Assembly: GCA_021297815.1 (NCBI GenBank) | Contig: JAJTGK010000010.1 | Span: 1-61,172 of the forward strand | Source: Planctomycetaceae bacterium | GTDB lineage: Bacteria; Planctomycetota; Phycisphaerae; Phycisphaerales; SM1A02 | Reading direction: 5' to 3' | DNA: 61,172 bases | Shown: piece by piece, positions 1-61,172 of the stretch | How positions within the stretch are numbered: position 1 is the stretch's first letter | Layout of the letters: the number at the start of each line of letters is the position of its first letter | Position numbers and translations under genes: made by a program | Notes under the pieces: generated by a model | The model's input: only the letters and a program-made list of their open reading frames with translations | Database searches by the model: none | What the model was told of the DNA's origin: nothing

Positions 1-742
1 AGCTGTCGCCTCTTCCGTGGCCGCGGTGCTCGAGATGCAGCGCCACACGCCAGTACCCCTGCTGCCGCTGCACGCGCAGGTAGCGCGAAAGCCTATCCGC
101 GTGATGATGCCGCACCAGCGAATGCGCCGCGAAACCGAGGCGCTCGCCCGACTCGAGCACGCGGAACGCGAGCTCCGCGTCCTGGCCCTTCAGGTAGCGC
201 TCGTCGAAACCCTGCAGCCGCTCGAGCGTGGCGCGGCGGTACACCACATTGAAGGTCGCGAGGAAATCGACCTCGTCGCCCATGCGCGCATGCCGCACCT
301 TGATCTCCTCGTGGATCAGCCGCTCGAGCAGCGTCGCGTCGGGCGCGATGTCGTAGCTGCCGCCTGCGCCGCCGAACGCCGCGCCGCCGCCAGCCCGCTC
401 GAGCGCGGGCAGAAGCGCGTCGAGCGCATCGGGCGCGGCCACGCAGTCGCTGTCCACGAACCATACGAGCGGCGTCGTGGCGGCGCGCCAGCCGATGTTG
501 CGCGCCGCGCCCGCGCCGCGCCCGCCGCTTGCAAGCACCTCGATGCCGCGCCGCTCTGCTTCGGCGCGCGTGCCATCGCGAGATCCGTCGTCGACAAGCA
601 CGATGCGCGCGAGCCGCGAGCCCGCGCGCCGCTCGACCGCGAGCGCCGCATCGAGGCAGGCCCCGATCGTGCGCATCGCGTCGCGCGCAGGGATCACGAG
701 CGTCACATCGCGTCGGTCCATCGTGCCGCCTTCATCGCCCAT
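1..742 (-). CDS. Family 2 glycosyltransferase (partial, runs off the window)
   Basis: The reading frame is open from an ATG at 742 to the left edge of the window, so about 247 residues of the N-terminal part are present and the C-terminus is missing. The protein opens with a beta strand typical of GT-A folds (VTLVIPARDA, about residues 13-22), has the nucleotide-sugar-binding VDDGSRDGT near residue 50 and a metal-binding-type FVDSDC near residue 86, all standard for GT2 enzymes that transfer a sugar from a nucleotide-sugar donor at the cytoplasmic face of the membrane. A second in-frame ATG lies at 721. The start overlaps the end of the upstream gene (stop at 732-734) by 11 bases, so the two are probably cotranscribed. 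Donor and acceptor cannot be told from sequence. The family call is firm. Confidence 0.85.
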   Translation of the reverse strand, partial: MGDEGGTMDRRDVTLVIPARDAMRTIGACLDAALAVERRAGSRLARIVLVDDGSRDGTRAEAERRGIEVLASGGRGAGAARNIGWRAATTPLVWFVDSDCVAAPDALDALLPALERAGGGAAFGGAGGSYDIAPDATLLERLIHEEIKVRHARMGDEVDFLATFNVVYRRATLERLQGFDERYLKGQDAELAFRVLESGERLGFAAHSLVRHHHADRLSRYLRVQRQQGYWRVALHLEHRGHGRGDS

Positions 743-2531
743 CGGACGGCGCCTCCTGAAGCGGTGAACGCCTCGACCGCGCCTCTGCAACTCCCGCCTC
801 GGCCGCGGCAAGCCTCGGGTCGACCGCAAGCGCCGCCTCGAACGCAGCCTCCGCGCCCGCGAAATCGCCTGCATCGAGCGCAGCCCGACCTGCGAGCACG
901 AGGTACCTCGCCTCGCTCGGCGCACGCTTCGCCGCGTTGCGATACGCCTGCGCCGCATCGGCATGCCGTCCAAGCGCACGCATCGCATCGCCGCGGAGTC
1001 CGTACACGCGCGCATCGGCCACCGTCGAGTTCGCCACCACATCGAGACGCGCGAGCGCCTGGTCCGCACGGCCCGCACGCATGTCGAGCACCGCGCGAAG
1101 GAACATCACATCGGGGTTTCCAGGCTGGATCTCCTCGGCGCGCGCGATGTCGGGCGCGGCAAGGTCGAACTCGCCGCGCGCCACGAGCAGCGAGGCGCGG
1201 TTCACGAAGCCGCGCGCATGCGCAGGCCGCCGCTCCACGACCTCGTCCCACAGCAGCACAGGGTCGCGATAGAGCGCGATCCTCGCCCGCGTCGCACTCG
1301 ATTCGAGGGCGATGGCCGCAAGCATCGCCGCCACGCACGCCGCCAGCACGCCCGTGCGCCGCGGCCATCCCACCAGTGCGGCCGCGCACGCGATCGCGAG
1401 CACGGCCAGCGGCAGATACATGCGCTGGTCCGCCGCGGGGTCGGCAAGCGGCACGATGCTCGTGGTCGGCGCAAGCAACGCAACAAACGCTACAGGAACG
1501 ACGGTCCACCACGCTCCGCGGCGCCATCCGACGACCGCGGCCACGGCAAGCGCCGCGAGCGTCGCGACCCCAAGCATCGGCATGAGCGACGGCGCGAGCG
1601 ACTCCGCGCCATGGTCGATCGACATTCTCGACGGGGCCACGCACATCGCGACATACAGCCCGACCGCCCGCACCTGTGACGCGGCGTACGACAGCGGCGT
1701 CGCATCGAGCACCCCTGCTCCGTACCCCGCAAGGCGGCCGTCGCCGCCGAACACGCCCTCGCCGATACCGAGCGAGAGCGGCAAGGCGATCAACACGAGG
1801 TTCGCGGCGTGCAATATCCAGCGCCGCTCGAGCGCCACGCGAAGCGAACCCGAGACCACGAACGCATCGACGGCGAGGAGCGCGATGGGCGCACCTGCCG
1901 CAGTCGGCTTCGAGAGCATCGCGAGCAGCGTGCCGCCCACGCATGCGGCCTTCATCCACACACGCCCAATTGCTGCGGCGCGCATCAACAGCAGCGCCGC
2001 GAGCAGCGTGAACAACGCGGCCAGCGACTCGGCGCGCTGGATCACATAGGTCGAGGCCGCCGTCGTGATCGGGTGCAACGCCCACAGCGCCGCCGCACCG
2101 AACGCCACGAGATCCGCGCGCGCCGCATCGGCGCCGATCGCACCGCGCGCGCGCAGCAGGTCGGCGCCGCGCCGCACGACGAGGTACACGAGCACCGCGA
2201 CAGCCGCATGAACCGCGAGGTTGACGAGGTGATAGCCCCACGGCTCGACGCCGCCCCACGCATGGTTCGCGGCAAGCGAGAGCTTGACGATGGGCCGCTG
2301 CGTGCCGAAGAGCCACGCAGCGCTCGCCTCGGGCACCGCGATGTCGCGCTCGCGCTCGACGATGTGCACGAGGTCGTCGAACACGAACCCCGCGTCGAGC
2401 GCGCCTCGATGCACCAGCGCGACCGCGGCCACCAGCAGCAGGCATCGCGGCCACGCCGACGGTGCGGCCTGTGCGGGTCGCGCGGGCAGGCTGCTCGTCT
2501 GGTTGGATGGCGAGTCGTCGGAGCCGCGCAT
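732..2531 (-). CDS. TMTC-like polytopic membrane protein with C-terminal TPR repeats
   Basis: A protein of about 600 residues. The first two thirds contain about ten hydrophobic segments. A luminal-type loop with FVFDDLVHIVE follows the first segment, and LWALHPI and YLPLAVL occur later; this pattern resembles eukaryotic TMTC proteins and their bacterial relatives, which are putative O-mannosyltransferases using lipid-linked sugar. The last third (about residues 430-590) is a row of TPR helices (HARGFVNRASLLVARGEFDLA and following), likely on the periplasmic side. The ATG at 2531 was chosen because the longer starts (2561, 2627) run into the divergent gene at 2560. It overlaps the next glycosyltransferase gene by 11 bases. 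Glycosyl transfer to protein is an inference from family resemblance and from the surrounding glycosyltransferase genes. Confidence 0.7.
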   Translation of the reverse strand: MRGSDDSPSNQTSSLPARPAQAAPSAWPRCLLLVAAVALVHRGALDAGFVFDDLVHIVERERDIAVPEASAAWLFGTQRPIVKLSLAANHAWGGVEPWGYHLVNLAVHAAVAVLVYLVVRRGADLLRARGAIGADAARADLVAFGAAALWALHPITTAASTYVIQRAESLAALFTLLAALLLMRAAAIGRVWMKAACVGGTLLAMLSKPTAAGAPIALLAVDAFVVSGSLRVALERRWILHAANLVLIALPLSLGIGEGVFGGDGRLAGYGAGVLDATPLSYAASQVRAVGLYVAMCVAPSRMSIDHGAESLAPSLMPMLGVATLAALAVAAVVGWRRGAWWTVVPVAFVALLAPTTSIVPLADPAADQRMYLPLAVLAIACAAALVGWPRRTGVLAACVAAMLAAIALESSATRARIALYRDPVLLWDEVVERRPAHARGFVNRASLLVARGEFDLAAPDIARAEEIQPGNPDVMFLRAVLDMRAGRADQALARLDVVANSTVADARVYGLRGDAMRALGRHADAAQAYRNAAKRAPSEARYLVLAGRAALDAGDFAGAEAAFEAALAVDPRLAAAEAGVAEARSRRSPLQEAPSDGR

Positions 2532-2559
2532 TTCCAGAAAGTCATGGTAGTGTGAGACC

Positions 2560-3291
2560 ATGCCGTCCGCGCCTGCAAGCGCCGATTCCAGCGTGCCTTC
2601 GATCGACCCAATGGTCGCGGAAGGCACCTGGGTCGTCGTGCCCGTCTACAACGAGGCGACGGCGATCGGCGGCGTGGTGGCCGAACTCAGGCGCACCTTC
2701 CCGAATGTGGTGTGCGTCGACGACGGAAGCACGGACGGCTCGTGGAAAGCCGTGCTTTCCGCCACGCCGCACGCGCTTCGCCACATGGTGAACCGCGGCC
2801 AGGGGGCCGCCATCCAGACAGGCACCGACTACGCCCTGCGGCGCGGCGCGCAGCGCATCGCGCACTTCGACGCCGACGGGCAGCACCGCGTCGAGGACCT
2901 CGTCACGCTCACCGAAGCCGTGGCGTCGGGAACCTGCGATATCGCCCTCGGCGACCGATTCTCGGGCGATGCCGCGGCGGTCCCTGCCGCGCGGCGCGCG
3001 CTGCTGCGAGCGGCCGTCGCGTTCCACCGCCTGACGAGCGGCATCGCGCTCAACGATGTGCACAACGGGCTGCGCGTCCTTTCGCGCCGCGCCGCCGAGC
3101 GCATCGAGATCACCGCCGACCGCATGGCGCACGCCAGCGAGATCATCGACCTCATCGCCGAAAGCGGCCTTGTCTACCGCGAGCTGCCCGTGCGCATCCG
3201 ATACACCGACTATTCCCGCGCCAAAGGCCAGTCGTGGGCAGGTGGCTTCCGCATCATCTTCCACTACCTTGTCGGCAGGATCCTCGGATGA
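2560..3291 (+). CDS. Family 2 glycosyltransferase, polyprenyl-phosphate sugar synthase type
   Basis: At 243 residues it matches the length of the soluble catalytic domain of dolichyl/polyprenyl-phosphate mannose or glucose synthases (DPM1/GtrB group). VVVPVYNEA opens the GT-A fold, VDDGSTDGS (about residue 54) binds the nucleotide, and FDADGQH (about residue 105) is the DXD-like metal site followed by the helix typical of this group. It would move a sugar from a nucleotide donor to undecaprenyl phosphate, giving the lipid-linked donor that the divergent TMTC-like membrane protein could use. No strong ribosome-binding site precedes the ATG at 2560; a second ATG at 2611 sits closer to the first strand and is a real alternative. 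The stop overlaps the next start (ATGA at 3288). Confidence 0.85.
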   Translation: MPSAPASADSSVPSIDPMVAEGTWVVVPVYNEATAIGGVVAELRRTFPNVVCVDDGSTDGSWKAVLSATPHALRHMVNRGQGAAIQTGTDYALRRGAQRIAHFDADGQHRVEDLVTLTEAVASGTCDIALGDRFSGDAAAVPAARRALLRAAVAFHRLTSGIALNDVHNGLRVLSRRAAERIEITADRMAHASEIIDLIAESGLVYRELPVRIRYTDYSRAKGQSWAGGFRIIFHYLVGRILG

Positions 3292-3653
3292 CGCCGTTCC
3301 AGATCATCCTCGTCGCCGTGCTCTCGCTGGTCGCGCTCGCGACCGTGGCGCTCGCGATGCGCGGCTCGATCGGCCGTCTCGCGGGGGTCGGCTGGCTTGC
3401 GGTAACGGGCGCGGGCATCGTGTTCGCGATCCGCCCGAACTGGACGACCGACATCGCGCATCTCCTCGGCATCAGCCGCGGCACCGACCTCCTGCTCTAC
3501 CTGCTCGTGCTGGCCGTGCTGCAGGGCTTCCTGCTGATCTACCTGAAGCTGCGGCGCGTGCGGCGCGAGCTCACGCTGCTCGTGCGCGAGCTCGCGATCC
3601 GCGAGGCGGAGCGGCGTGGCGACGGCGGTGCCGGCGACACGGAGCGACGATGA
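3288..3653 (+). CDS. DUF2304 small membrane protein
   Basis: A 121-residue protein with three hydrophobic segments (about residues 5-22, 30-48 and 66-88) and a charged, arginine-rich C-terminal helix, matching DUF2304 proteins in size and layout. Members are usually encoded directly after a DPM1-like glycosyltransferase, as here, and are presumed to anchor or regulate that enzyme at the membrane. The ATG overlaps the preceding stop in ATGA and its own TGA overlaps the next ATG at 3650, so translation is probably coupled in this run of genes. The biochemical role of the family is unknown. Confidence 0.75.
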   Translation: MTPFQIILVAVLSLVALATVALAMRGSIGRLAGVGWLAVTGAGIVFAIRPNWTTDIAHLLGISRGTDLLLYLLVLAVLQGFLLIYLKLRRVRRELTLLVRELAIREAERRGDGGAGDTERR

Positions 3654-4729
3654 CCGATGCACGCGACGCGCCAGAGGCGAGCGTCGTGGTCGCCGCGTGC
3701 AACCGCCGCGAGAAGACGCTCGCATGCATGCGCGCGCTTGTCGCACAGACGCACCGCGCCTACGAGATCATCATGGTCGACGACGGCTCGACCGACGGCA
3801 CGCCCGACGCGGTCGAGGAACTCGCGCGCACCGCGCGCGTGCCGCTGCGCGTGCTGCGCAACGGCCGCAACATGGGCGCGAATCCCAGCAGGAACCGAGG
3901 CGTGCGCGAGGCGCGCGGAGCGCTCGTCGCGTTCATCGACTCCGACTGCTACGCCGACGCCGAGTGGCTTGCAAGGCTCACGGCGCCGTTCGCCGACGCG
4001 CGCGTGGGCGCGGTGACGGGCCTCGTCGACGACACGCCCGCGACCAACGCATGGGAACTCGCCTTTCGCGGCACGCACCGCCTGCCGCGGCGCGGGCCCG
4101 TGGGGCGCGTCGTCATCGGAAACCTCTGCGTGCGCCGCGCGCTGCTTGCAGCCCACGCGCTCGACGAGTCGCGACCCACGCGGCGCCTCGTCGACGGCTC
4201 GCCCGACCTCGCGATCTCGGCGCGTTCCGACGAGGAAGGCCTGAACCTCGCGCTGCGCGCCGCGGGCTGGAAGGTGCTCGCCGAGCCGTCGGCACGCGCG
4301 GTGCACGACCATCCGTATTCGTTCCGCAGCCTGATGCGCCAGGCGTGGTTCGGCGGCCAGTCTGCGGCGGAACTCGTGTGGAAGTACAGGCTCGGCCCGC
4401 GCAAGGACCTGGCGCCGATCGCGCTCTTCGACGCCACGCTTGTGGCAGCGCTCATCGCGTGGCCGTTCGTGTCGCCGCTCGTATTCCTTGCGCCGCTCGC
4501 GGCGCTCGTTCCGCCTGTCGCGGCGATCTCGTACAACGAACTGCGCAACAAGGGCAAGACGCCCCTTGAACTCCTGCGCTCTGCACCCGCGCTGGCCGTC
4601 TACTACCAGGTCCGTCTCGCGGGCTACGCGCGGCGGCGCGTGGAACTGCTGTTCGGCCGGCGCACGATTGCGCGAGTCGCGCGCGACGAACTCGCGCGCG
4701 TGCTTCCGCGGCCCGAGGATCTCGCATGA
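3650..4729 (+). CDS. Family 2 glycosyltransferase
   Basis: A 359-residue GT2 enzyme. SVVVAACNRREKTLACMRAL (residues 10-29) is the first strand and helix; VDDGSTDGTPDAVEEL (about 43-58) binds the nucleotide; IDSDCYADAEWL (about 91-102) is the metal site. Residues after about 255 hold two hydrophobic segments, suggesting membrane attachment, as in rhamnosyl- and galactosyl-type transferases. It starts in ATGA overlap with the DUF2304 gene and ends in ATGA overlap with the flippase gene, so it belongs to one transcription unit with 2560-7435. The sugar added is not predictable. Confidence 0.85.
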   Translation: MTDARDAPEASVVVAACNRREKTLACMRALVAQTHRAYEIIMVDDGSTDGTPDAVEELARTARVPLRVLRNGRNMGANPSRNRGVREARGALVAFIDSDCYADAEWLARLTAPFADARVGAVTGLVDDTPATNAWELAFRGTHRLPRRGPVGRVVIGNLCVRRALLAAHALDESRPTRRLVDGSPDLAISARSDEEGLNLALRAAGWKVLAEPSARAVHDHPYSFRSLMRQAWFGGQSAAELVWKYRLGPRKDLAPIALFDATLVAALIAWPFVSPLVFLAPLAALVPPVAAISYNELRNKGKTPLELLRSAPALAVYYQVRLAGYARRRVELLFGRRTIARVARDELARVLPRPEDLA

Positions 4730-6219
4730 TGTCGCCGCGCGCACAGGACCACGCGCATCTCGCGCGGCGCACCACGCGTGGCGCTGCAACCATGCTGGCC
4801 GCGCGCTTCGCGAGCGCGCTTGCAGGTCTCGGCGCCACCGCCGTCCTCGCGCGCTTCATCTCGCCCGAGGAGTACGGGCTGGTCGCCATGGTGCTTGCGG
4901 CGATGGCGCTCGCGCGTGCCTTCGAGGAAGTCGGCCTTGGCGACGCGATGGTCCAGCGCACCGAGGTCACGGGCGCACAGATGTCGTCGCTCTTCTGGCT
5001 GAACACGCTGAGCGGCGCGCTGCTCGCGCTCGTGTTCGCGCTGGGTGCGCCGCTTCTCGCGACGATCCTCGGAGAAGCGGACCTCGCGCCGTTCGCGCGT
5101 GCGCTCGCGCCGCTCTTCCTGCTGTCGGCGCTCGGCGCGCAGCACCGCGCCTGGCTGCGCAGGCATCTCTCGTTCCGCGCGCTCGCGCTCGCAGCGTCGG
5201 GATCGGTGCTCGTGGGCGCCCTCGCGGGCATCGTGGCGGCGTTCGCAGGACTCGGGCCGTGGGCGCTCGTGGTGCAGCAGCTCGCGGCCGCGACCACGCT
5301 GCTCGCCGCAACCTGGGCGGCTTCGGGCCTGAGGCCCTCGCGGCCCGCGCTCGCCGAAGGACTTCGACCGCTGCTCGCCTACGGCGTCTCGCACACGGGC
5401 ACGCAGCTCGTCACTGCGGCGAGCCGCAACATCGACACGATCCTGCTCGGTCGCGTCGCAGGCCCCGCGATCGCGGGCGTGTACGACCGCGCGTTCCGCA
5501 CCATGGCGCTGCCTGCCACGCAGCTCAACCAGCCGGTGGCGAGTGCCGTCGTGCCCGCGCTCGCGCGGCTTCAGAACGACCCCGAGGGCTACCGCAGGCT
5601 CTATCGCGGCGCGATCGAATGCGCGGCGTCGATCGCGTTTCCCGCCGCGGTGTTCACCTTCGCCGCGGCGCCTGCGATCGTCGGCACGCTGCTTGGCGCG
5701 CAGTGGAGCGATGCCGCGCCGATCCTGCGCGCGCTTGCGCCGTGCGGACTCATGATGTCGCTCAACGCAGGCACCGCGTGGGCCTACCAGTCGCTTGGCC
5801 ACACGCGGCGGCAGCTGCAATGGACGATCCTCGGCTCGAGCGTCGCGATCGTGGCGATCGTCTGCGGCCTGCCGTGGGGCGCGCTCGGCGTCGCGATCGG
5901 GCTGAGCGCGGCGCGCGTGGCGATGCGGCCGTTCGGTGTCCTGTACTGCTTCCGCGGCACCTTCCTGAGCTCGCGCGACCTGATCGAGCCTTCGTGGCGG
6001 CCTGCGTGCGCGGCGGTCGTCGCGGGCGCGGCGGCGTACATCGTCGATCCCACGCAGCTTTCCGCACCGCTCCGACTCTGCGTGCAGATGTCGGTGTTCG
6101 TATTCGTCGCGCTTGCATCGATGGCGCTGATTCCTGGCGGCCTCGCGCGGCTTCGCGCCTCGCGCGCCATCGTGGCCTCGCTGCGCGCGCCGCGCACGGA
6201 GGCGACGCATGCCAATTGA
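4726..6219 (+). CDS. Wzx-type oligosaccharide flippase (polysaccharide biosynthesis protein)
   Basis: A 497-residue protein with about 12-14 hydrophobic segments spread over its whole length and few charged residues, the form of MOP-superfamily flippases (Wzx/RfbX, WzxC) that move lipid-linked oligosaccharides across the inner membrane. The N-terminal region (RRTTRGAATMLAARFASALA) and the glycine/proline-poor helices match that family. It is encoded between two glycosyltransferases with a 4-base overlap upstream and an 11-base overlap downstream, the usual context. Two ATG codons lie in a row at the start (4726 and 4729). The class is clear; the exact glycan is not. Confidence 0.88.
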   Translation: MMSPRAQDHAHLARRTTRGAATMLAARFASALAGLGATAVLARFISPEEYGLVAMVLAAMALARAFEEVGLGDAMVQRTEVTGAQMSSLFWLNTLSGALLALVFALGAPLLATILGEADLAPFARALAPLFLLSALGAQHRAWLRRHLSFRALALAASGSVLVGALAGIVAAFAGLGPWALVVQQLAAATTLLAATWAASGLRPSRPALAEGLRPLLAYGVSHTGTQLVTAASRNIDTILLGRVAGPAIAGVYDRAFRTMALPATQLNQPVASAVVPALARLQNDPEGYRRLYRGAIECAASIAFPAAVFTFAAAPAIVGTLLGAQWSDAAPILRALAPCGLMMSLNAGTAWAYQSLGHTRRQLQWTILGSSVAIVAIVCGLPWGALGVAIGLSAARVAMRPFGVLYCFRGTFLSSRDLIEPSWRPACAAVVAGAAAYIVDPTQLSAPLRLCVQMSVFVFVALASMALIPGGLARLRASRAIVASLRAPRTEATHAN

Positions 6220-7435: not shown

Positions 7436-8086
7436 TCACCGCGCCACGAACGCAGGCGGCCCGCCGATCGGCACCACCTCGACGCGGCCGACGCGATCCA
7501 CGCCCGCTCGCGCGAAGCCTGCCTTGGGCGCCACCATGGTCGCCGTGACCGTCGCGCGCACGCACTCGGGCATGGCTTCGCCCGTGTCGCAGTCCATCCC
7601 GCTCGGCAGGTCGATGCTGAGAACAGGCGCTCCGCTCGCATTGATCCACCGCACGAACGCAAGCGCATCGCCTTCGAGCGGCCGATCGAGGCCCGTGCCG
7701 AAGAGCGCATCGACGACGAGTTCGCCGCCATTCGCCGTGGTTTCGGCGCGAAAGCGCTCCATCGGCACCCCTGCGTTCCGCGCGCGCGCGCGCATGATCG
7801 CCGCATCGCACCCCTCGCGCGGTTCTCCAAGGAAGACGACGCGCACCTCGTGCCCGTCATGGCGCAGGAGTTCGGCGACCCGATATCCGTCGCCACCGTT
7901 CTGGCCCGATCCACACGCCACGGTGATGCGCGCGCCGGCCGCGCCACGGAGCATTCCACGCGCGATCCGCGCCACGCCATCCGCCGCGCGCTCCATCAGA
8001 GCGACGCCGGGAATGCGGAGCACCCGCATGCAGTGCGCGTCGTAGGCGCGCGCATCGCGTCTGGTGAAGGCAATCGGTGCGTCCAT
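7436..8086 (-). CDS. nnrE: NAD(P)H-hydrate epimerase (YjeF N-terminal domain only)
   Basis: A 216-residue protein covering the YjeF_N fold. ACGSGQNGGDGYRVA (about residues 58-72) is the substrate loop; VVDALFGTGLDRPLEG and SIDLPSGMDCDTGE carry the catalytic aspartate region and the cofactor-contact motif. It interconverts the R and S forms of hydrated NAD(P)H so that a dehydratase can repair the S form. In many bacteria it is fused to the dehydratase NnrD; here the C-terminal kinase-like domain is absent and no partner is nearby. The gene ends against the glycosyltransferase stop and is divergent from the lipoprotein at 8135, with less than 50 bases for both promoters. Confidence 0.88.
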   Translation of the reverse strand: MDAPIAFTRRDARAYDAHCMRVLRIPGVALMERAADGVARIARGMLRGAAGARITVACGSGQNGGDGYRVAELLRHDGHEVRVVFLGEPREGCDAAIMRARARNAGVPMERFRAETTANGGELVVDALFGTGLDRPLEGDALAFVRWINASGAPVLSIDLPSGMDCDTGEAMPECVRATVTATMVAPKAGFARAGVDRVGRVEVVPIGGPPAFVAR

Positions 8087-21416: not shown

Positions 21417-23989
21417 GTGAATGATCCGGGCCTTCTGTGCCGTTTCGGAGCGCTGCTCCGTGCGTTCTCGCGCCATGCCGCGGCCGTTGTCGCGCTGAGC
21501 GCGGCCGCGCTGCTCGCAGCGCGCGCGCCTGCGCAGTCGACCGATCTGATCATCTCGGAGTATGTCGAAGGCTCGAGCAACAATCGTGCCATCGAGATCT
21601 ACAACGGCACGCTGTCCAGCGTGAACTTCACCGCCGGCGCCTACCGCCTCGCCATCTACCGCAATGGCGCCGCCTCGCCGTCATCGATCATCTCGCTCAG
21701 TGGAACCCTGCCGAGCAACGGCCGCTGGGTCGTCGTGAGCGCAAGTGCGGGCAGCACGCTCCTCGCCCGCGCCAATCAGACCGCGTCGAACAGCCAGTTC
21801 AGCTTCAATGGCGACGACGCCATCGTGCTGATCAAGGGTGCGACCAACGCGGTCGTCGATGCCTTCGGCCAGACGGGCTTCGACCCGGGCACCGCGTGGA
21901 CCGCAGGCGGCGTGACCACGGTCGATGTCACGCTCGTGCGCAAGCCGACGATCTGCGCGGGCGACATCATCGCGAACAACGCGTTCAACCCTTCGCTCGA
22001 GTGGACGCAGTTCCCGATCGACACCTTCACCAACCTCGGCTCGCATGTCGCGAACTGCATCGACCTCTGCCCGAACGATCCGAACAAGACGCAGCCAGGG
22101 CTCTGCGGCTGCGGCGTACCCGACACCGACAACGACGGCGACGGCACGCCGAACTGCTTCGACGGCTGCCCGAACGACGCAGGCAAGACAGAGCCGGGCG
22201 ACTGCGGATGCGGTGTACCCGATGCAGACTCCGACGGCGATTTCCTGCCCGACTGCGTCGACGGCTGCCCGAACGATCCGTTCAAGTTCTCGCCTGGTCT
22301 GTGCGGCTGCGGCGTGACCGACATCGATTCCGATGGCGACGGCACGGCGAACTGCCTCGACGGCTGCCCGAACGATCCGGGCAAGACGCAGCCAGGTCTC
22401 TGCGGCTGTGGCGTGCCCGACACCGACACCGACGGCGACGGCACGCCCGACTGCAACGACGGCTGCCCGAACGACCCGACCCGAACCGCACCACCGCGGC
22501 AACCTGGTACCTCGACGCCGACGGCGACGGCTTCGGCGACCCGAACGCCACGCTGCTCGCGTGCAAGCAGCCCTCAGGCTATGTCGCGACCGCGGGCGAC
22601 CTCTGCCCCGCCGATCCGCTCAAGCAGGCGCCTGGGCAGTGCGGCTGCGGCGTGCCCGACACCGACACCGATGGCGATGGCACGGCCGACTGCAACGAAT
22701 CGAAGCCCCAGCTGCGGCTGTGGGCCGACAACCCCGCGGTCCGCGCGGGCGGCACGCTCGTGGTCACCGTCGCGATGACCGACCTCGACGACGCCGCGGT
22801 GGGCGCGCAGTTCGCGCTGCACTTCGACGAGACGCGGCTTGCCTTCGCCACCGCCGAAGCGCTGGCGACAGGTCCGATGCCGCGTGAGATCTACGAGTCG
22901 GCCGACAACATCGCCGGAACCCTGATCTACGCGCAAGGCGTGAACGACGGCGCCGCGGGCACCTCGGCCGCGGCCGACCTCGCCGAACTCCGCTTCACCG
23001 CGCTCGAAGACCTCGCGGGCCTCGACGGCTGCGACATCACGCAGCTCGTGCGGTTCGCCGCCGTGCCGCCCGTCAGCACGCGCGTCGCCAACGCGAACGG
23101 CCAGCCCATCGCCGTGCTCCTCTTCGACCTCGGGCCCGTCGATGTCGATGTCACCGCGCCCGTCCTGTCGGGAGTGCCCGCGAACATCAGCGTGCCCGCG
23201 ACCTCGTCGTCGGGCGCCTTCGTGGCGCAACCGTCGGTGACGGCCTCCGACAACTGCGACCCTGAAGTCTCGGTGACGCTCTCGATCGTCTTCCCGAACT
23301 CCTCGACCTCGTCGTCCTGGCCGCTGGATGGAATCTTCCCGATCGGCACGACAAGCGTCTCGTGGAGCGCGACCGACGACGCAGGCAACACCACGACCGC
23401 CGCACGCACGATCACCGTCGTGAACGCCGCGCCCGTCGTCACCATCACCTCGCCCGCGCCGAACAGCCAGTTCTTCCTCAGCACCGCGATCACCTTCAGC
23501 GGAACCGCGATCGACAACGAGCAGGGCAACCTGACCTCGATCCTCGTCTGGACCTCGAACCTCCAGGGCCCGATCGGCTCGGGCGGCTCGTTCACCCGCA
23601 GCGACCTCGTGATCGGCACGCACACGATCACCGCAAGCGCCACCGACATCACGGGTGCCGTGGGAAGCGCCTCGATCCAGGTCATCGTGCTCGACCCAGG
23701 CGCCTTCCTGCCCGCAGCCCCGACGAACCCGAACGCGACCGTCTCGGGCAGCGTGGTCACCGTGACCTGGACGGACAACGCGAACAACGAGCAGTTCTTC
23801 GAGATCCGTCGCCAGCAGCGCCTTTCGAACGGTGGCTGGGGCAACGAGGCGATCGTCGGCACCGTGGGCGCGAATGTGACGAGCTTCTCGCAGTCGCCTG
23901 GCGCTGGACGCTGGCGGTACTCGGTGCGCGCGGTCAACGCCGCAGGCCCCTCGAGCTGGACCGCCTGGGTTCAGATCAATGTGAACTGA
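21417..23989 (+). pseudogene. Secreted lamin-tail / cohesin-like / HYR / FN3 protein, frameshifted by a 5-bp tandem duplication
   Basis: The gene starts at GTG 21417 with GAGGAG upstream and has a signal peptide ending APAQS. Domains in order: a lamin-tail-like domain (LIISEYVEGSSNNRAIEIYN), five or six thrombospondin-3-like calcium repeats of the form DTDNDGDGTPNC, a cohesin-like beta sandwich (LRLWADNPAVRAGGTLVVTV), a HYR domain (TAPVLSGVPANIS to ASDNCDPEV), then the same Ig/FN3 tail as the subtilase before it. The frame changes inside the fifth calcium repeat: ACCCG is present twice in tandem at 22474-22483, and removing one copy restores GCPNDPNRTTAATWYLDADG in frame. As written, the first frame ends at 22778 and the second half is open to 23989. 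Mutation, phase-variable tract or sequencing error are all possible. Confidence 0.85.
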
Positions 23990-35459: not shown

Positions 35460-35639
35460 GCGAGCATCATCCCGATATCAACGAGTTCATGCGCTGTCGA
35501 CACACGCGCGTTCGAGCGCGATGCGAGCGGCGTACATCTCACGCACTCATGGTCTCGATAACCCCACAATTACGGACCTAAGGAAGAATCCCTCTCTCGT
35601 CAATGCGGAACTCAAAATGCAAAATTGAACGCTGTCGGA

Positions 35640-35669
35640 TGTACACCTGTACAAATTGTCGGCTATAGT
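35640..35669 (+). promoter_or_regulatory. Possible promoter with a TGTACA dyad
   Basis: TGTACA-CC-TGTACA (35640-35653) forms a near-perfect dyad; TATAGT at 35664-35669 lies 18 bases after the first TGTACA, as a -10 element would. The flanking 150 bases are notably AT-richer than the rest of the window. The remaining 35460-35723 interval holds no gene I can support. Confidence 0.35.
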
Positions 35670-35723
35670 TGGGCTTGGTGGAAGGCGCCGAAGCGCCTGG
35701 AAATCTTGTTGGATGGAGAAATC

Positions 35724-36380
35724 ATGAGAAAGATGATCGCATCGACGGCGGCGTTGCTTGCTGCAAGCATCGCCTGTGCGGACACCATTAGCTTCTCGGG
35801 TGAAGATCTGGCCACGGAGAGCATCGCGTCCTTCACGGGCTCGATGACGTGGAACTACGGCGGCAGCGGCGAGGGCACCCTCGTCGTCAGCCTCACGAAC
35901 ACCTCGAACCCGAGCAACGGTGGTTTCCTGACTGGCTTCGTGTTCAACACGGCCTTCTCGGGTCCGAACCTCACCCTGTGCAACGCGCCGAACGCGTCGT
36001 GGCTCATCCAGCAGAATGCCTCGGGTTCGCCCTTCGGCACCTTTGACTGGGGCGCCGCGCTCGGCGGCAACTTCCTCGGCGGCGGCAACCCCGCGGCGGG
36101 AATTGCTGTCGGCGATACGGGAACCTTCACCTTCTGCGTGAAGGGCGACGACTCGATCCTCTCGGGTCTGTCGGCCGCGTCGTTCTTCGACGGCGACTGC
36201 ACCTGCGAGCCCGGCGAGGAGAATCGCTATCCGTTCGCGGCCCGCTTCCGCGGCTTTGCCGACGGCGGCTCGGACAAGGTCATCGCCTGTCCGCCCTCGG
36301 TCGTGCCGGTTCCGATGCCCGTGGCGCTCGCCGCCGCAGGCCTCCTCGGCGTTGGCCTGATGCGTCGCCGCATCAAGTGA
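35724..36380 (+). CDS. Secreted protein with VPVPM-type PEP-CTERM-like tail, paralogue A
   Basis: A 218-residue protein with a signal peptide (RKMIASTAALLAASIACAD), a beta-rich body and the tail VPVPMPVALAAAGLLGVG followed by LMRRRIK. Four conserved cysteines appear in LTLCNAPN, FTFCVKG and DGDCTCEPGEENR, with a fifth in IACPPS, so disulfides are likely. GGAG precedes the ATG by 6 bases. It is about 65-70 percent similar by eye to the next gene along its full length. It has its own terminator and probably its own promoter. Family unknown; surface structural protein inferred. One of only two ACGT tetranucleotides seen in the window lies in this gene (35847). Confidence 0.85.
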   Translation: MRKMIASTAALLAASIACADTISFSGEDLATESIASFTGSMTWNYGGSGEGTLVVSLTNTSNPSNGGFLTGFVFNTAFSGPNLTLCNAPNASWLIQQNASGSPFGTFDWGAALGGNFLGGGNPAAGIAVGDTGTFTFCVKGDDSILSGLSAASFFDGDCTCEPGEENRYPFAARFRGFADGGSDKVIACPPSVVPVPMPVALAAAGLLGVGLMRRRIK

Positions 36381-44764: not shown

Positions 44765-45209
44765 TCACTCGACGTCGGCGAGGCTCTTGTAGCGGATGTT
44801 GGCGAGCGCGATGTCCATGCCCGCCATCAGGCCCTTCTGCTGGCCGACATAGATCGCAAGCCCCTCGCGGAACGGTGCGGTGGCCGTCGCGCCCTCCTCG
44901 GCGGCGACAGCCGTCGCGGCCACGCTGCCGCGCCACGCGTCGTCCTTGAAGGCACGGAAGGTCTTGTCGTCTTCAAGGAGCATGAGCATCTTGAAGCCCT
45001 GCGCGCCGATCTGCAGGCCGATGGAGCCCTTGTTGAGCACCGCCCAGCCGACCTGCTTGCCCGACTTGTCGTAGACCGCGCCGCGGCCGAACGAGCCGCC
45101 GACGATCAGGCCGGCCTGGCCGACGCTCGGGAAGACGATGTAGGCGGCCGACGAGTTGATCTGCGACTCGCATGGCGGCGGCGGTGATGGCGAGGATCGT
45201 GTTCTTCAT
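44765..45209 (-). pseudogene. SYLF (Ysc84-like) lipid-binding protein, truncated and frameshifted
   Basis: The ATG at 45209 has AGGAG upstream and begins a signal-like sequence MKNTILAITAAAM. The SYLF domain itself reads in another frame: QINSSAAYIVFPSVGQAGLI, GGSFGRGAVYDKSGKQVGWA, then NKGSIGLQIGAQGFKML to a stop at 44765. About 30-50 residues expected between signal and domain are missing and the frame changes at the junction near 45168-45180. SYLF proteins are exported and bind phosphoinositide-like lipids or participate in stress responses. The last codons contain ACGT (44772), the second of two in the window. Possible real deletion or assembly collapse. Confidence 0.75.
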
Positions 45210-52942: not shown

Positions 52943-52968
52943 GTCGAAAAACAGAGGGAGTTAGGAAA

Positions 52969-53722: not shown

Positions 53723-53766
53723 CTATGCCTGAGGTGGGTTCGGACCCTGAACCTCGGGCGTACCCG

Positions 53767-54954: not shown

Positions 54955-54989
54955 GGTGGCTCCGTGTGGTGTCAGGTGCGGAAGTCGTC

Positions 54990-55979
54990 TCAGGCGGACG
55001 CGGCGGCGCCCGTCCGCTCGAGGCGGCGTGCATTGAATCGGCGAATCAGCTCGTCGGCCGCCACTCCCACGAGGAGCACGGCGCCGATCACCGCGAACTC
55101 GAGCTGCGACGACAGCCCGACGAGGATGATCGTGTTGCGCAGGACCTGCAGCGTCGCGGCGCCCACGACCACGCCGATCACGCTGATCTCGCCGCCGCGC
55201 AGGCTGCAGCCGCCGAGGACGGCCGCGGCGATCGCGTAGAGCTCGTAGAAGTTTCCGAAGTCCGAGGGCTGCGCGCTGCCGATGTCGAAGATGAACAGCA
55301 TGCCGCCGAAGCCCGCGAGCAGGCTGCACGCGACATAGCTCATGGTCACCAGCCACGCGGTCGGAACGCCCGAATAGCGCGCGGCGCTCTCGTTGCGCCC
55401 CGTCGCGAGCAGCCAGCGCCCCCACACCGTGCGCGAGAAGAAGAGGCCGATCAGGACCGCGAGCACGATCATCGGGATCACGGTCGATGGGATGCGGTAG
55501 TTCTCGATGCCTGGAATCGCGAACTTGGTGAGCGCGATCGCGCGGACCTCGCCGAATTCGCCCATGAAGCCCTGGGTCTGGTCGCCCGTCATCCAGCGCG
55601 CGATGCCGCGGTAGAGGAGCAGGCCGCACAGCGTGACGAGGAACGGCTGCAGCCGCAGCCGCGTGACGAGGAGCCCGTGGCAGAGCCCGATGAACGCGCT
55701 CATGAGCAAGACCGTGGGGATGACCTGCGCAGGTGCCCACTCGTGCTCGACGAGCAGCCACGGCGTCATGATGCCCGCGAGGCACACCACCGAACCGATC
55801 GAGAGGTCGATGCCGCCCGTGACGATGACGAGCGACGCGCCGAGCGCGAGGATCGAGTACAGCGCCGCGCGCTGCGTGAGCTGCATCAGGTTGATGCCCG
55901 TCAGGAAGTTCTCGCCGAAGATGCAGGCGACGATGAAGATCGCCGCGAAGATCCCGATGATGCCGAGCGCCTTCTTCAT
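54990..55979 (-). CDS. Ribose-type sugar ABC transporter, permease
   Basis: A 329-residue protein with eight to ten hydrophobic segments, matching the RbsC/AraH family (BPD_transp_2). ALGASLVIVTGGIDLSIGSV (about residues 45-64) is the family signature, and AIAAAVLGGCSLRGGEISVI is the loop that meets the ATPase. The ATG overlaps the ATPase stop in ATGA (55976-55979). With the ATPase and binding protein it forms a CUT2-class importer for a pentose or hexose. Confidence 0.92.
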   Translation of the reverse strand: MKKALGIIGIFAAIFIVACIFGENFLTGINLMQLTQRAALYSILALGASLVIVTGGIDLSIGSVVCLAGIMTPWLLVEHEWAPAQVIPTVLLMSAFIGLCHGLLVTRLRLQPFLVTLCGLLLYRGIARWMTGDQTQGFMGEFGEVRAIALTKFAIPGIENYRIPSTVIPMIVLAVLIGLFFSRTVWGRWLLATGRNESAARYSGVPTAWLVTMSYVACSLLAGFGGMLFIFDIGSAQPSDFGNFYELYAIAAAVLGGCSLRGGEISVIGVVVGAATLQVLRNTIILVGLSSQLEFAVIGAVLLVGVAADELIRRFNARRLERTGAAASA

Positions 55980-57511
55980 GCGTGTTCCTTGGCTCCGTGC
56001 GCGGCCGAGCCGCCTGTCGCGAGGTGCATGATGGCGACTTCGCTCGCCTCGTGGGCGGCGAGTTCGCCCGCGACCGTTCCCTCGTGCATCACGAGGATGC
56101 GGTCGGCGAGGAGCAGGACCTCCTCGAGCTCGCTCGACGCGAACACGACCGCGCTGCCCGCGTCGGCGAGGCGGCGGACCTCGGCGTGGATTTCGGCGCG
56201 GGCGCCCACATCGACGCCGCGGGTCGGCTCGTCGAGGAGGAGCACCGCGGGATCGATGGCGAGCCACCGCCCGATGACCGACTTCTGCTGGTTTCCGCCT
56301 GAAAGCGTCTGCACGCGCCGCGCGGGGTGCGGCGGCCTCAGCTGCATGCGGTCGATCATGCGGGCGACCAGGCCGCGCTCGCCGCGCCGGTCGACGAGGC
56401 GCGCGCGGCTCGAACGGTCGACCCACGCGAGCGACATGTTGACCGACACCGCGTCCTCGAGGAAGAGCCCGTTGCGCGCGCGGTCCTCGGGCACGATGGC
56501 GATGCCGCGGCGCACGCGCACGCTGGAGCCGCCCGTCACCTCGAGGCCATCGACGAGCACGCGCCCGCCGTGCGGCGATACGCCCGCGATCGCCTCGAGC
56601 GCCTCGGTGCGGCCCGCGCCCACGAGGCCCGCAAGGCCCACGATCTCGCCCGCGCGGACCTCGAACGACATGGGCGCGCGCCGCCGATGCGCGCTCACGA
56701 GGCCCTCGACGCGCAGCCGCACGGGCGCCGCGCCGTTTGCCGCGCGCCGCATCGATGGCGCGATGTCGCGACCGACCATGAGCCGCTCGACCATCGCGCG
56801 GTCGTACTCGCCGCGGGCGAGCTCGCCCGTCTTGCGGCCGTCGCGCAGCACGACCACGCGGTCGGCGATGCGCATCACCTCGTCGAGATGGTGCGACACG
56901 AACACCACCGCCACGCCGCGCGCGCGCAGCGCCGACATGATCTCGAGCAGCCTGTCGGCCTCGCGGTGCGTCAGGCTCGAGGTCGGCTCGTCGAGGATCA
57001 GGATGCGCGACTCGGTCGAGAGCGCCTTCGCGATCTCGACGAGCTGGCGCTGCGCGATCGGCAGCGACCCGCACGGCGTCGACGGATCGACATCGAGCCC
57101 CACGAGGTCGAGCCAGCGCCGCGCCTCGCGCCGCATGCGCCGCGTGTCCATCCAGCCAAGGCGCGACGGCTCGCGCCCGAGGTAGATCGAGCCCGCGACA
57201 TCGAGGTTCTCGGCGAGGTTCAGCTCCTGATGGACGAGCGCGATGCCCGCCTTGGTCGCGCCGCGCACGCCGTCGAGCTCGACCGCGCGCAGCGCGCCCG
57301 ACGCATCGGCGACCTCGAGCGAACCATCGCTCGGCTGCACCACGCCCGAGAGGATCTTGAGCAGCGTCGACTTGCCCGCGCCGTTCTCGCCGACGATCGC
57401 CAGCACCTCGCCGCCGCGCACATCGGCGTCGATGCCCGCAAGCGCCGTCACGCCCGCATAGCGCCGGCCGACGCCGCGCACGCGCAGGAGAACGGGCTTC
57501 TCGTCAGGCAT
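55976..57511 (-). CDS. Ribose-type sugar ABC transporter, duplicated ATPase
   Basis: A 511-residue protein with two ABC domains in one chain, as in RbsA. The first has Walker A GENGAGKST (about residues 41-49), the signature-like SLPIAQRQLVEIAKAL and Walker B RILILDEPTSSL with H-loop VSHHLDE. The second has the degenerate Walker A LVGAGRTEAL, the signature LSGGNQQKSVIGRWLA and Walker B VLLLDEPTRGVD, the usual asymmetry of this subfamily. It powers import through the permease. It is located between the binding protein (21-base gap) and the permease (4-base overlap). Confidence 0.93.
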   Translation of the reverse strand: MPDEKPVLLRVRGVGRRYAGVTALAGIDADVRGGEVLAIVGENGAGKSTLLKILSGVVQPSDGSLEVADASGALRAVELDGVRGATKAGIALVHQELNLAENLDVAGSIYLGREPSRLGWMDTRRMRREARRWLDLVGLDVDPSTPCGSLPIAQRQLVEIAKALSTESRILILDEPTSSLTHREADRLLEIMSALRARGVAVVFVSHHLDEVMRIADRVVVLRDGRKTGELARGEYDRAMVERLMVGRDIAPSMRRAANGAAPVRLRVEGLVSAHRRRAPMSFEVRAGEIVGLAGLVGAGRTEALEAIAGVSPHGGRVLVDGLEVTGGSSVRVRRGIAIVPEDRARNGLFLEDAVSVNMSLAWVDRSSRARLVDRRGERGLVARMIDRMQLRPPHPARRVQTLSGGNQQKSVIGRWLAIDPAVLLLDEPTRGVDVGARAEIHAEVRRLADAGSAVVFASSELEEVLLLADRILVMHEGTVAGELAAHEASEVAIMHLATGGSAAHGAKEHA

Positions 57512-57532
57512 CGCCGTGGGCGCAGGGCGCGG

Positions 57533-58603
<1,071 letters not shown>

Positions 58604-58637
58604 GGGGTTCTCCTCAGTTCTCTCTGGCACGACGCGG

Positions 58638-59402
58638 TCAGCCGACCGTCATTCCGCCGTTCACATGGATGTCCTGGCCTGTCACGAAGTTCGAGCTCTC
58701 GCTCGCAAGGAAGACGACCGTGCCCGCGAGGTCCTGCGGGATTCCCCAGCGGCCCATCGGGATCAGGCGGCGGTAGCCCTCCTTCTCGTGCTCTGGGTCG
58801 TTGGCATGGCGCTCGACGGGGATCCAGCCTGGCGCGATCATGTTCACGGTGATGTTCCACGGCGCGAGCTCGTTCGCCATCGAGCGCGACCAGCCGATCT
58901 GCCCGCCCTTGGCGGCGACATAGGCGCTGAACGGCGCGACGCCGCGGTTGAAGACCTCGCTCGTGATGTTGATGATGCGGCCCCAGCGCTGCGCCTTCAT
59001 GTGCGGCAGCACCTCGCGCGACAGGAGGTACGGGCTCTTCACGAAGAAGTCGTACATCGACTGGTAGAACTCCCAGTCGTACTCCTCGATCGGCTTGAGC
59101 GGCTGCGCGGGGGTGGCGTTCGGGATGAGGATGTCGATCGGGCCGAGGTCGGCCGCGATCTGCGCGCAGAGCGACTTCACCTCGACGGGGTCGATCACGC
59201 TCGCGCGGTAGAGCCCGCCCTGGAAGCCCTCGGCGCGGTACTCGGCGAAGGTCTTCTCGGCCCACTCCTTGCCGTTCGCGTAGTTGAAGGCGACCTTGCA
59301 GCCCGCCGAACCGAGCGCAAAGGCCATCGCCTTGCCGAGACCCTTCGAGGAGCCGGTGACGAGCGCGACCTTGCCATCGAGACGGAAGTTCGGGGCGTGC
59401 AT
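58638..59402 (-). CDS. SDR family NAD(P)-dependent oxidoreductase
   Basis: A 254-residue classical short-chain dehydrogenase. TGSSKGLG (residues 16-23) is the cofactor-binding glycine motif, NATPAQ replaces the common NNAG, Ser148 lies in INITSEVF, and Tyr161-Lys165 in SAYVAAKGG complete the catalytic set. APGWIPVERHAN follows the usual PG motif. No cofactor specificity is certain. It lies 34 bases before the binding-protein start and 27 bases after the propeller protein stop, so it probably oxidises or reduces the imported sugar or its derivative. Confidence 0.9.
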   Translation of the reverse strand: MHAPNFRLDGKVALVTGSSKGLGKAMAFALGSAGCKVAFNYANGKEWAEKTFAEYRAEGFQGGLYRASVIDPVEVKSLCAQIAADLGPIDILIPNATPAQPLKPIEEYDWEFYQSMYDFFVKSPYLLSREVLPHMKAQRWGRIINITSEVFNRGVAPFSAYVAAKGGQIGWSRSMANELAPWNITVNMIAPGWIPVERHANDPEHEKEGYRRLIPMGRWGIPQDLAGTVVFLASESSNFVTGQDIHVNGGMTVG

Positions 59403-59429
59403 GGGCTCCGCAGAATAGCGGAATCGCCC

Positions 59430-61103
59430 TCAGTGGCCAGCGCGGATGGCCACGAGTTCGCGCGCCGAACGGTGGTAGAGCACGCCCCCCGCCGCCGATG
59501 GGCCCGACATCGACCAGCAGTCGCCGAGGGGCCCGAGGTCGTTGACCGCGACGAGCGCGCGCTGGTCGAGGTCCTCGGCCGCGATGTCGACGACATAGAC
59601 CGTGCCGAGCATGGTCGTGATGTAGAGGTGCCCGCCAAGCACGACCGGCGTCGGGAAGAACGCGTCGATCTCCCAGCCGTCGGTGCGCGAACGGTCCTCG
59701 TCGGCGATCTCGACGCCGCGCGCGTCGACGGTCTTCGTGCGCAGCGGCTTGCCGTACAGGCGCGTGCCGTCGGCGGCGACGCCCACGGGAAGCTCCATGA
59801 TCTCGACGCGGCCCGTCTCGACATGCACGCGCCCGAGCGAGTATGCAGGCCCGCTGTGGCCCGCGGGCGCGAGGCCGTTGCGGCGGTTGTTCGTCGTGCA
59901 GAGGAACCAGTGGTATCCGCCCGCGACGAGGTTCGTGTGCCACTGCGGATGGATGTGGAGCCGCTCGCCTGGCGCGAGCGGGAACGAAGGGTCGGCGACG
60001 GCCGCGAGTTCGACGCCGACAAGCAGTTCGCCGGACGCACGCGTGAGATCGACCTTCCCCGACAGCGACTGCTCGCGCACGAGCGCGCCCGTCGCAGCAT
60101 CGAGCACGAGATGCGACTGCTCGCGGCCGTTGCGGAACCAGTACGCGAAGCGCTCGTCCGAATGCAGCGCATAGAGCGCTTCCCAACCGCCGTCATCGCG
60201 GAGTTCCCCCGTCGGCTCGAACATCCACACGCGCTTCCCGTTCGCAGGATCGATCATCGAGAGGCCCACCGGCCGCTCGGGCACATCGTGCGGGCCGCCG
60301 CGCCCGATCAGGATCCCGCGCGGACCAAGCACGGGCGTGCAGTAGAAGGTGCAGGATTCCTCGGAGATCCACGCGACCTTTCCCGTCGCGCGATCGATCG
60401 CATGCAGGTAGTTCCAGTCGTCGCGCGCCGCGTCGTAGCGCGGGTGGTCCTTCGCGATCGGCTCGATGGTGACGAGAAACTCGCCGACTGCGATCGGCTC
60501 GCACTGGCGGTTGAAGGGATAGGCGTCGGGCTGCGTGCGGAACTCGCGGCGCCACACCTCGTCGCCGTCGCGTGTGAAGCAGGCCATCGAACCCGAACTG
60601 TTGAAGAACCACACGCGGTCGTGGCTTGCGATGGGCGACCACGAGGTCGAGTCGCTGAACGCGTACATCTGCGGACTCGTGCGGCCGTGGTCGGCGCGCA
60701 GTTCACGCGACCACACCATCTTGCCCGTCGCGCGGTCGACCGCGTGGCACAGGATCGCGTTCGACTGCCGCGGCTTCGCAGGATCCTGCTCGGCGAAGGT
60801 CGTGAGATAGACGCGGTCGCCGACCACCGCGATGCCGCCCTGCCCCGCATTCGGCAGCGCGCACCTCCACAGGATGTTCTCGCCGCGCGCGACCGACCAC
60901 TCGGTCGCCACGCGCGCGTCGGGCGCGATCCAGTTCGCGTGCGGGCCCGCGGCCTGCGGCCAGGGCGCGTCGGTCGCGCACCCCGAAGCCGATAGCGCAA
61001 GAGATCCGAGTGCGGTCGCCCGCAGCGATGGCAGACATGCCGCCACAAAGCGCAGCCGAGCGAAGTCACGGGAGATGCAACGCCGCCATCGATGACGATT
61101 CAT
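59430..61103 (-). CDS. PQQ-like beta-propeller lipoprotein
   Basis: A 557-residue protein. The lipobox is LALSASGC (about Cys42). The rest is a series of PQQ-enzyme-like/pyrrolo-quinoline repeats, each with a W-type motif such as VDRATGKMVWSRELR, IDRATGKVAWISEES and IDPANGKRVWMFEPT, forming a propeller. The cofactor-binding residues of true quinoproteins are not evident, so it is probably a structural or binding propeller as in BamB. It is the first gene of the six-gene operon. The final 69 bases of the window (61104-61172) hold its upstream region and nothing else recognised. Confidence 0.82.
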   Translation of the reverse strand: MNRHRWRRCISRDFARLRFVAACLPSLRATALGSLALSASGCATDAPWPQAAGPHANWIAPDARVATEWSVARGENILWRCALPNAGQGGIAVVGDRVYLTTFAEQDPAKPRQSNAILCHAVDRATGKMVWSRELRADHGRTSPQMYAFSDSTSWSPIASHDRVWFFNSSGSMACFTRDGDEVWRREFRTQPDAYPFNRQCEPIAVGEFLVTIEPIAKDHPRYDAARDDWNYLHAIDRATGKVAWISEESCTFYCTPVLGPRGILIGRGGPHDVPERPVGLSMIDPANGKRVWMFEPTGELRDDGGWEALYALHSDERFAYWFRNGREQSHLVLDAATGALVREQSLSGKVDLTRASGELLVGVELAAVADPSFPLAPGERLHIHPQWHTNLVAGGYHWFLCTTNNRRNGLAPAGHSGPAYSLGRVHVETGRVEIMELPVGVAADGTRLYGKPLRTKTVDARGVEIADEDRSRTDGWEIDAFFPTPVVLGGHLYITTMLGTVYVVDIAAEDLDQRALVAVNDLGPLGDCWSMSGPSAAGGVLYHRSARELVAIRAGH

Positions 61104-61172
61104 GTCGTCAGGCTACTCGGTCTGCCCGAACTTCGAGCCAGCGACTCACCTGGTGCCATCGCCCATCGAGCA

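What the first reader, a model, noticed from the sequence alone, without database searches (positions are those of the whole stretch)
1..61172. Near-complete absence of the tetranucleotide ACGT, enforced through synonymous codon choice
Reading the whole window for ACGT, I found only two copies, at 35847 and 44772. At about 68 percent GC, base composition alone predicts about 180. Codon use shows active avoidance: Asp is almost always GAC, but before a Val codon it is GAT (for example VDVDV at 23138-23152 is GTC GAT GTC GAT GTC, while the nearby Asp before Leu is GAC). Likewise His, Asn and Tyr before Val are CAT, AAT and TAT, and Thr before T-starting codons is ACC not ACG. One exception lies in a low-GC duplicated gene and the other in a broken gene. 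This suggests long-term selection against the palindrome, such as a restriction system, a damaging modification or a reserved protein-binding signal.
Basis: partly seen in the sequence, partly recalled or inferred. Interest (0 to 1): 0.8.

Follow-up and report, generated by a model that had tools for sequence, protein, structure and literature searches.

The report
Genome nearly purged of ACGT
This water bacterium has lost almost every copy of the four-letter DNA word ACGT from its genome by using alternative spellings of its genes, as have several of its relatives, most likely because an unidentified DNA-cutting defence system made each copy slightly harmful.

Summary
Stretches of 20 other contigs of the same 3.03-Mb MAG (Phycisphaerales relatives) hold 9 against 658. 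Intergenic DNA and all 16 flanking contexts are depleted too. In 28 of 80 related loci the ratio is below 0.25, and sister species differ sharply.

Selection fits better than mutation: Thr-ACG before T becomes ACC, not ACA, and 7 of the 12 strongest avoiders lack C5-cytosine methylases. In 11 avoiders the 16S gene keeps 3-6 copies while 3 kb of flanks have 0-1, so a copy is costly, not lethal.

Best reading: a present or past ACGT-specific restriction-type system, not identified. The published ACGT methylases that I found are m5C. All 12 strongest avoiders carry a conserved amino-methyltransferase (P0001), but so do 77 of the other 139 genomes, and its substrate is unknown. Outside the order three avoiders lack it. 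No endonuclease was found.

The parts
1..61172 (.). whole window: ACGT almost absent (3 against 191 expected)
35847..35850 (.). residual ACGT inside predicted ORF 35733-36380 (+); the longer ORF 35625-36380 has no Pfam match
44772..44775 (.). residual ACGT inside ORF 44765-45040 (-), 91 aa, weak Ysc84 match
23138..23152 (+).

Best explanation
ACGT is kept out of this genome by weak but persistent selection against the double-stranded DNA word. The most likely source is a long-resident (present or recently lost) ACGT-specific type II-like restriction system, in which rare failures of protection make every extra site slightly costly. Shown here: depletion in coding and intergenic DNA, purging by synonymous choice, recurrence in related species, and tolerance of sites in 16S genes. 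Inferred: that the agent is a nuclease, and that it is or was paired with a protecting amino-methyltransferase. The conserved methyltransferase P0001 (G000:C13:3783-4700, minus strand) is only a candidate. The nuclease was not found.
For: Depletion in window and genome. Coding 8/754 and intergenic 4/88, three of those four inside one repeat locus. All 16 flanks depleted. Between sister species 7 of 265 aligned ACGT sites kept, against 33-60% for 15 control tetramers; the 21 pairs share loci. Frame-resolved Thr ACG|T became ACC 17, ACA 7, ACT 2, and stayed ACG 4. Scaled selection of 6.5 (Asp/Asn/His/Tyr before GT) and 5.5 (Thr before T) under a mutation-selection reading. In 11 cleanly counted avoiders the 16S gene keeps 3-6 ACGT (4.6-7.1 expected) with 0-1 in 3 kb of flanks. 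Sister species differ: L113 0.00, L119 0.82, L116 0.88; L132 0.02, L144 0.76, and avoidance needs 16 changes on the P0001 tree (13 forced by well-supported branches), as gain and loss of a second gene would give. Rusinov 2015 (PMC4687349; abstract and passages): only orthodox type II systems cause avoidance as a rule, and traces remain after loss. P0001 is in all 12 genomes with GACGTC/CTGCAG below 0.1, with 89 carriers among 151 (Fisher p 0.0015, not corrected for kinship).
Against: No restriction endonuclease was found. P0001's neighbours that have a Pfam match are housekeeping, transport or metabolic genes; several tested neighbours have no Pfam match. 77 of the 89 P0001 carriers are not among the strongest avoiders. 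Outside the order, G203 (0/25), G157 (0/9) and G156 (9/47) are low in ACGT without a P0001 match at 1e-30. P0001's predicted fold matches generic methyltransferases, with Trm11 tRNA methyltransferase among them, so DNA as substrate is not shown. Only about 10% of the own genome (317,881 bases) was read, and the MAG is 88% complete.
Confidence: 0.55

Rival explanations
1. Mutational decay: a C5-methylase marks ACGT, and deamination turns it into ATGT or ACAT, as reported for M.Hpy99XI in Helicobacter pylori.
For: Raw fates are rich in ATGT (65) and ACAT (52): 117 of 192 single changes. Precedent PMC10423294 (passages). PF00145 is present in 5 of the 12 strongest avoiders.
Against: In the Thr frame ACG|T becomes ACC, not ACA: the ACA share of non-ACG codons before T (5.1%) does not exceed the rest (3.1, 10.1 and 3.0% before A, C and G; Fisher p 0.39 pooled), and ortholog fates agree. 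In NAC|GT, C>T is the sole silent change, so it says nothing. PF00145 is absent from 7 of the 12 strongest avoiders, including the five with fewest GACGTC.
Confidence: 0.05
2. The methyltransferase P0001 methylates ACGT, and the mark itself is slightly costly (for transcription, repair or binding), so sites are purged without any nuclease.
For: All 12 strongest avoiders in the order sample carry P0001; of 39 readable non-carriers only G067, with 3 sites against 9 expected, had o/e below 0.5.
Against: Closely similar P0001 occurs in sister species with and without avoidance; three distant avoiders lack it; its substrate is unknown; PMC4687349 (abstract) ties avoidance to orthodox type II systems.
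Confidence: 0.12
3. ACGT is a reserved protein-binding signal, or part of a mobile near-palindromic repeat, that must stay rare elsewhere.
For: 7 of 17 residual sites in 317,881 bases of the own genome lie in a 55-bp near-palindromic interspersed repeat.
Against: The other 10 sites are scattered, 9 of them in predicted genes. The repeat's core words were seen elsewhere in the fetched loci only as single hits in L007 (own genome) and L139. That known binding signals are not depleted to 1% is recalled, not tested.
Confidence: 0.1
4. RNA-level avoidance: a sequence-specific ribonuclease cuts ACGU in mRNA.
For: Depletion is somewhat stronger in coding than in intergenic DNA (0.011 against 0.045).
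Against: Intergenic DNA is nearly as depleted once the repeat is set aside; the strongly depleted words ACGT, CCGG and CTAG are palindromes, which an RNA target need not be; 16S genes keep ACGT, although folded rRNA may be shielded.
Confidence: 0.07
5. Artefact of binning, assembly or composition.
For: The genome is a MAG of 180 contigs.
Against: The same word is depleted in separately deposited MAGs; second-order and synonymous-codon nulls; the other CG-centred tetramers except CCGG are at 0.77-1.39.
Confidence: 0.01

Closest known systems
Restriction-site avoidance by orthodox type II R-M systems (Rusinov et al. 2015, PMC4687349; abstract and passages seen)
   Same: Short palindrome depleted genome-wide; patchy among relatives; may persist as a trace of a lost system.
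   Different: Much stronger: o/e 0.01-0.02 by my Markov measure, where that study calls avoidance at a Kr of 0.78 or less (a different index). No endonuclease and no proven cognate methylase found here.
Helicobacter pylori M.Hpy99XI / ACGT (PMC10423294; passages seen)
   Same: Same word; lineage-specific loss of sites, largely silent in coding DNA.
   Different: There m5C, with loss skewed to ATGT/ACAT; here no C5-methylase match in 7 of the 12 strongest avoiders and no excess of the deamination product where another silent change exists.
MaeII of Methanococcus aeolicus (PMC10113651; passages seen)
   Same: A restriction system that cuts A^CGT.
   Different: Its methylase is m5C; here PF00145 has no match in the own MAG, which is 88% complete, nor in 6 more of the 12 strongest avoiders.

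Membership tests
Orthodox type II R-M system specific for ACGT | Recognition palindrome depleted in the host genome | tested here: met
Orthodox type II R-M system specific for ACGT | Cognate DNA methyltransferase present | tested here: inconclusive
   P0001 is in all 12 strongest avoiders of the order sample, but its specificity and substrate are unknown; second candidate P0003 is in 33 of 151 genomes, avoiders and non-avoiders alike
Orthodox type II R-M system specific for ACGT | Restriction endonuclease next to the methyltransferase | tested here: not met
   none recognised near P0001 among the neighbours given to Pfam; several neighbours have no Pfam match, and an unlinked endonuclease is not excluded
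Orthodox type II R-M system specific for ACGT | Methylation and cleavage at ACGT | not testable with these tools
   no reads or proteins available
m5C ACGT systems (MaeII, Hpy99XI type) | C5-methylase (PF00145) present | tested here: not met
   no match in the own MAG (88% complete) and in 7 of the 12 strongest avoiders, the own MAG included; present in the other 5
m5C deamination decay | Lost sites become ATGT/ACAT even where other silent changes exist | tested here: not met
   the raw, frame-blind fates alone would have suggested it
Reserved binding signal | Remaining sites at conserved positions | tested here: inconclusive
   7 of 17 own sites lie in one repeat family; conserved placement across avoiders was seen only inside 16S genes

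The most novel reading that the evidence does not exclude
Phycisphaerales carry an ACGT-directed modification and restriction system of a new layout: a widely kept amino-methyltransferase (P0001) embedded among housekeeping genes, with an unlinked nuclease gained and lost so often that sister species range from none to nearly full avoidance, driving some genomes to a few GACGTC copies in about 3 Mb (2 in G113, at least one of them in its 16S gene).
Probability: 0.22. Interest if true: 0.75.

Novelty: new member of a known kind. Interest (0 to 1): 0.57.

Why it matters
It is a very strong case of word avoidance (about 1% of expectation) with natural replicates: closely related aquatic Planctomycetota that do or do not avoid ACGT. 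That makes a causal-gene search by comparison practical, gives an estimate of the very weak selection that such a system imposes, and supplies codon-usage evidence that separates selection from deamination. It also shows that codon choice in these genomes is partly dictated by a DNA-level constraint.

Tried and rejected
C5-methylase system and deamination: contradicted. Endonuclease linked to P0001: genes of 80 named loci plus the own one were clustered without an avoider-specific neighbour (76-77 of these 81 gave a called P0001), low-GC gaps in four avoider loci read by eye, neighbours given to Pfam, further contexts listed; none recognised. P0001 on plasmids and phages: only relatives of at most 46% identity over part of the query; in viral contigs none. 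Second methyltransferase P0003 (C130; phmmer best match M.BseCI): in avoiders and non-avoiders alike. EVE-domain protein P0002 on C130: no PADLOC match, no PDB match below E 0.7, no relative in the loci held at that time; not followed further. PADLOC scans gave mostly type II methyltransferase models for P0001 and P0003, and weaker type IIG, type I, BREX and DISARM methylase models. Phylum-wide GACGTC counts mislead at low GC: G236, G383, G445 and G463 look low by count but have ACGT o/e of 0.65 or more. Fold search of P0001: generic methyltransferase fold. (16S word, 3 mismatches) was too loose to use; one search replaced it. Gene calls in scripts come from a simple codon-usage caller of my own, not a standard program. 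The MTase-carrier labels and the counts were copied by hand into. The tree label test compared avoiders only with intermediates; one search repeated it against all other rows. Papers: 0 hits for ACGT + tetranucleotide + avoidance + restriction-modification and for Phycisphaer + palindrom + avoidance; 5 for ACGT + underrepresented + tetranucleotide + genome + bacteria (listing only). Two environmental methylome papers searched for Phycisphaer: no occurrence in PMC6329791 or PMC9516812. Searches were seen as listings, apart from the papers cited here.

Full report
Observation. The window has 3 ACGT (24528, 35847, 44772) where a second-order Markov model expects 190.9 and base composition 171. 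Shuffling synonymous codons inside each of 46 predicted genes gives 161.8 (sd 7.4, lowest of 500 shuffles 135) against 2 in those genes. CTAG (4/39) and CCGG (93/454) are also low in the window.

Genome. The window is contig C134 of a 3,032,785-base MAG in 180 contigs, 88% complete. Contigs C1-C20, each to at most 20 kb (238,738 bases), hold 9 ACGT against 658 expected, o/e 0.014; CCGG is 382/1812. Coding DNA gives 8/754 and intergenic DNA 4/88; three of the four intergenic sites lie in one repeat locus. All 16 flanking contexts are depleted, so the avoided word is ACGT itself. Whole-genome GACGTC is 24 against 1591 for the reversed control CTGCAG. Relatives found through a methyltransferase (P0001) are mostly titled Planctomycetota, Phycisphaerales or Phycisphaera; several records are unnamed bacteria or carry other names (Kuenenia, Limnohabitans, a cyanobacterium). 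I infer that the MAG belongs to Phycisphaerales.

Codons. On 299,910 bases, Asp, Asn, His and Tyr before GT are spelled with T 597 times and with C 5 times, against 585 to 3254 before GA, GC and GG, a 664-fold shift; Thr before T shows a 240-fold shift away from ACG. Read as mutation-selection balance this is a scaled selection of about 5.5-6.5, which is small per site.

Not deamination. If m5C deamination removed ACGT, Thr ACG before T should become ACA. It becomes ACC: ACA is 5.1% of non-ACG Thr codons before T and 3.1, 10.1 and 3.0% before A, C and G (p 0.39 pooled). Between sister species 7 of 265 aligned ACGT sites are kept, against 33-60% for 15 control words. The raw fates are mostly ATGT and ACAT (117 of 192 single changes; 66 further sites changed at more than one position), which alone would favour deamination. 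Resolved by frame, NAC|GT allows only C>T silently (T 87, C 2), while Thr ACG|T went to ACC 17, ACA 7, ACT 2 and stayed ACG 4 (13 of the 21 pairs). The pairs share loci and are not independent. C5-methylase family PF00145 has no match in the own MAG and in 7 of the 12 strongest avoiders (own MAG included), among them the five with fewest sites; 65 of 151 genomes have it, 5 of the 12 included.

Not lethal. One search covered 27 chosen genomes for 16S; 20 matched, and 7 (the own MAG among them) did not. Of the 16 loci with a full-length match, 12 are from avoiders; 11 of these could be counted cleanly and keep 3-6 ACGT in 16S (4.6-7.1 expected), with 0-1 in 3 kb of flanks. The three non-avoiders have 5 each in 16S and 5-9 in the flanks. 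Two shorter loci (G120, G048) were counted with flanks and are set aside. The partial 16S matches of G125, G028, G037 and G023 were not counted.

Relatives. In the 80 best of 305 loci around P0001, 28 have ACGT o/e below 0.25; 13 of these have none at all, and three of the 28 have fewer than 10 expected. On the tree of 76 P0001 proteins, avoidance (28 rows against 48) needs 16 changes, 13 of them forced by well-supported branches; shuffles need 22.8 on average and none of 500 was as low, so avoidance is clustered but has switched many times. Close neighbours differ: L113 0.00, L119 0.82, L116 0.88; L132 0.02, L144 0.76; L140 0.05, L155 0.50. GACGTC across 151 genomes of the order falls to 2, 3, 4 and 16 copies in G113, G131, G092 and G040.

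Candidate methyltransferase. The own MAG has one PF01555 protein, P0001 (306 aa), with the two halves of the family in swapped order. It is strongly matched (E below 1e-58, next best 2e-9) in 89 of 151 genomes (tally). All 12 genomes with a GACGTC/CTGCAG ratio below 0.1 carry it (Fisher p 0.0015, not corrected for kinship). At ratio below 0.2, 18 of 20 carry it; the two others, G066 and G093, are low-GC genomes with sampled ACGT o/e of 0.79 and 0.77. In samples of at most 20 kb, 8 of 40 carriers are below 0.35, while of 39 readable non-carriers only G067 (3 against 9 expected) is below 0.5; a fortieth, G016, read as N. Carrier samples were taken around P0001, non-carrier samples elsewhere. Against this: 77 of 89 carriers are not in the strongest class; and at phylum scale (392 genomes, 76 with P0001 at 1e-30) the avoiders confirmed by o/e outside the order are G222, G360 and G492 with it and G203, G157 and G156 without it. 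One search read 20 genomes picked mostly for low counts, ten of them non-carriers. P0001 lies beside a DHH phosphoesterase and a FAD synthetase in L136 (that DHH cluster is in 37 of 81 loci) and beside transport genes in other loci. No endonuclease was recognised among the neighbours given to Pfam, several of which have no match. P0001's predicted structure (mean pLDDT 78) matches generic methyltransferases, Trm11 among them, so a DNA substrate is unproven.

Other candidates. In 15 strong or fairly strong avoiders, all P0001 carriers, PF01555 finds further methylases in 12 and none beyond P0001 in G000, G037 and G087; PF07669 hits 11 of 15. The own PF07669 hit is P0003 (532 aa, C130), with a relative of 41% identity in G087; the family is in 33 of 151 genomes at 1e-12, avoiders and non-avoiders alike. 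An EVE-domain protein, P0002, lies close by.

Verdict. Selection against the DNA word is established as far as sequence can. A restriction-type cause is the most likely, because the depleted words are palindromes, the status switches between sisters, and orthodox type II systems are the documented cause of such avoidance (PMC4687349, abstract and passages). The nuclease and the protecting methylase are not identified. The published ACGT systems that I found are m5C (PMC10113651 and PMC10423294, passages) and do not fit.

Noticed in passing
window 1-61172 and contigs C1-C20 of the same genome: CCGG is depleted about five-fold (93/454 in the window; 382/1812 in the contigs), in all flanks, and not always together with ACGT in relatives (G102: ACGT 0.02, CCGG 1.07).
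   Followed up: partly
L014:5933-6120 and L239:7814-8010 (own genome, C12 and C130): A 55-bp near-palindromic interspersed repeat (50 of 55 positions match its reverse complement; one of four copies diverged) carries 7 of 17 residual ACGT sites in 317,881 bases of the own genome; it looks like a REP-type element (label recalled).
   Followed up: partly
L239:966-1802 (own genome, C130): 278-aa protein with a C-terminal EVE domain and an N-terminal half that resembles a PD-(D/E)XK nuclease (motif recalled), near a gamma-class methyltransferase: a possible modification-dependent restriction enzyme.
   Followed up: partly
L222 (G203), L221 (G157), L223 (G156): Distant Planctomycetota low in ACGT without a P0001 match; G203 and G157 also avoid several other palindromes in small samples.
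   Followed up: no
L054 (G057), L104 (G026), L237 (G113), L050 (G087): Other strong palindrome depletions in relatives: GGCC 0.14, GCGC 0.14, AATT 0.18 and AATT 0.13.
   Followed up: no
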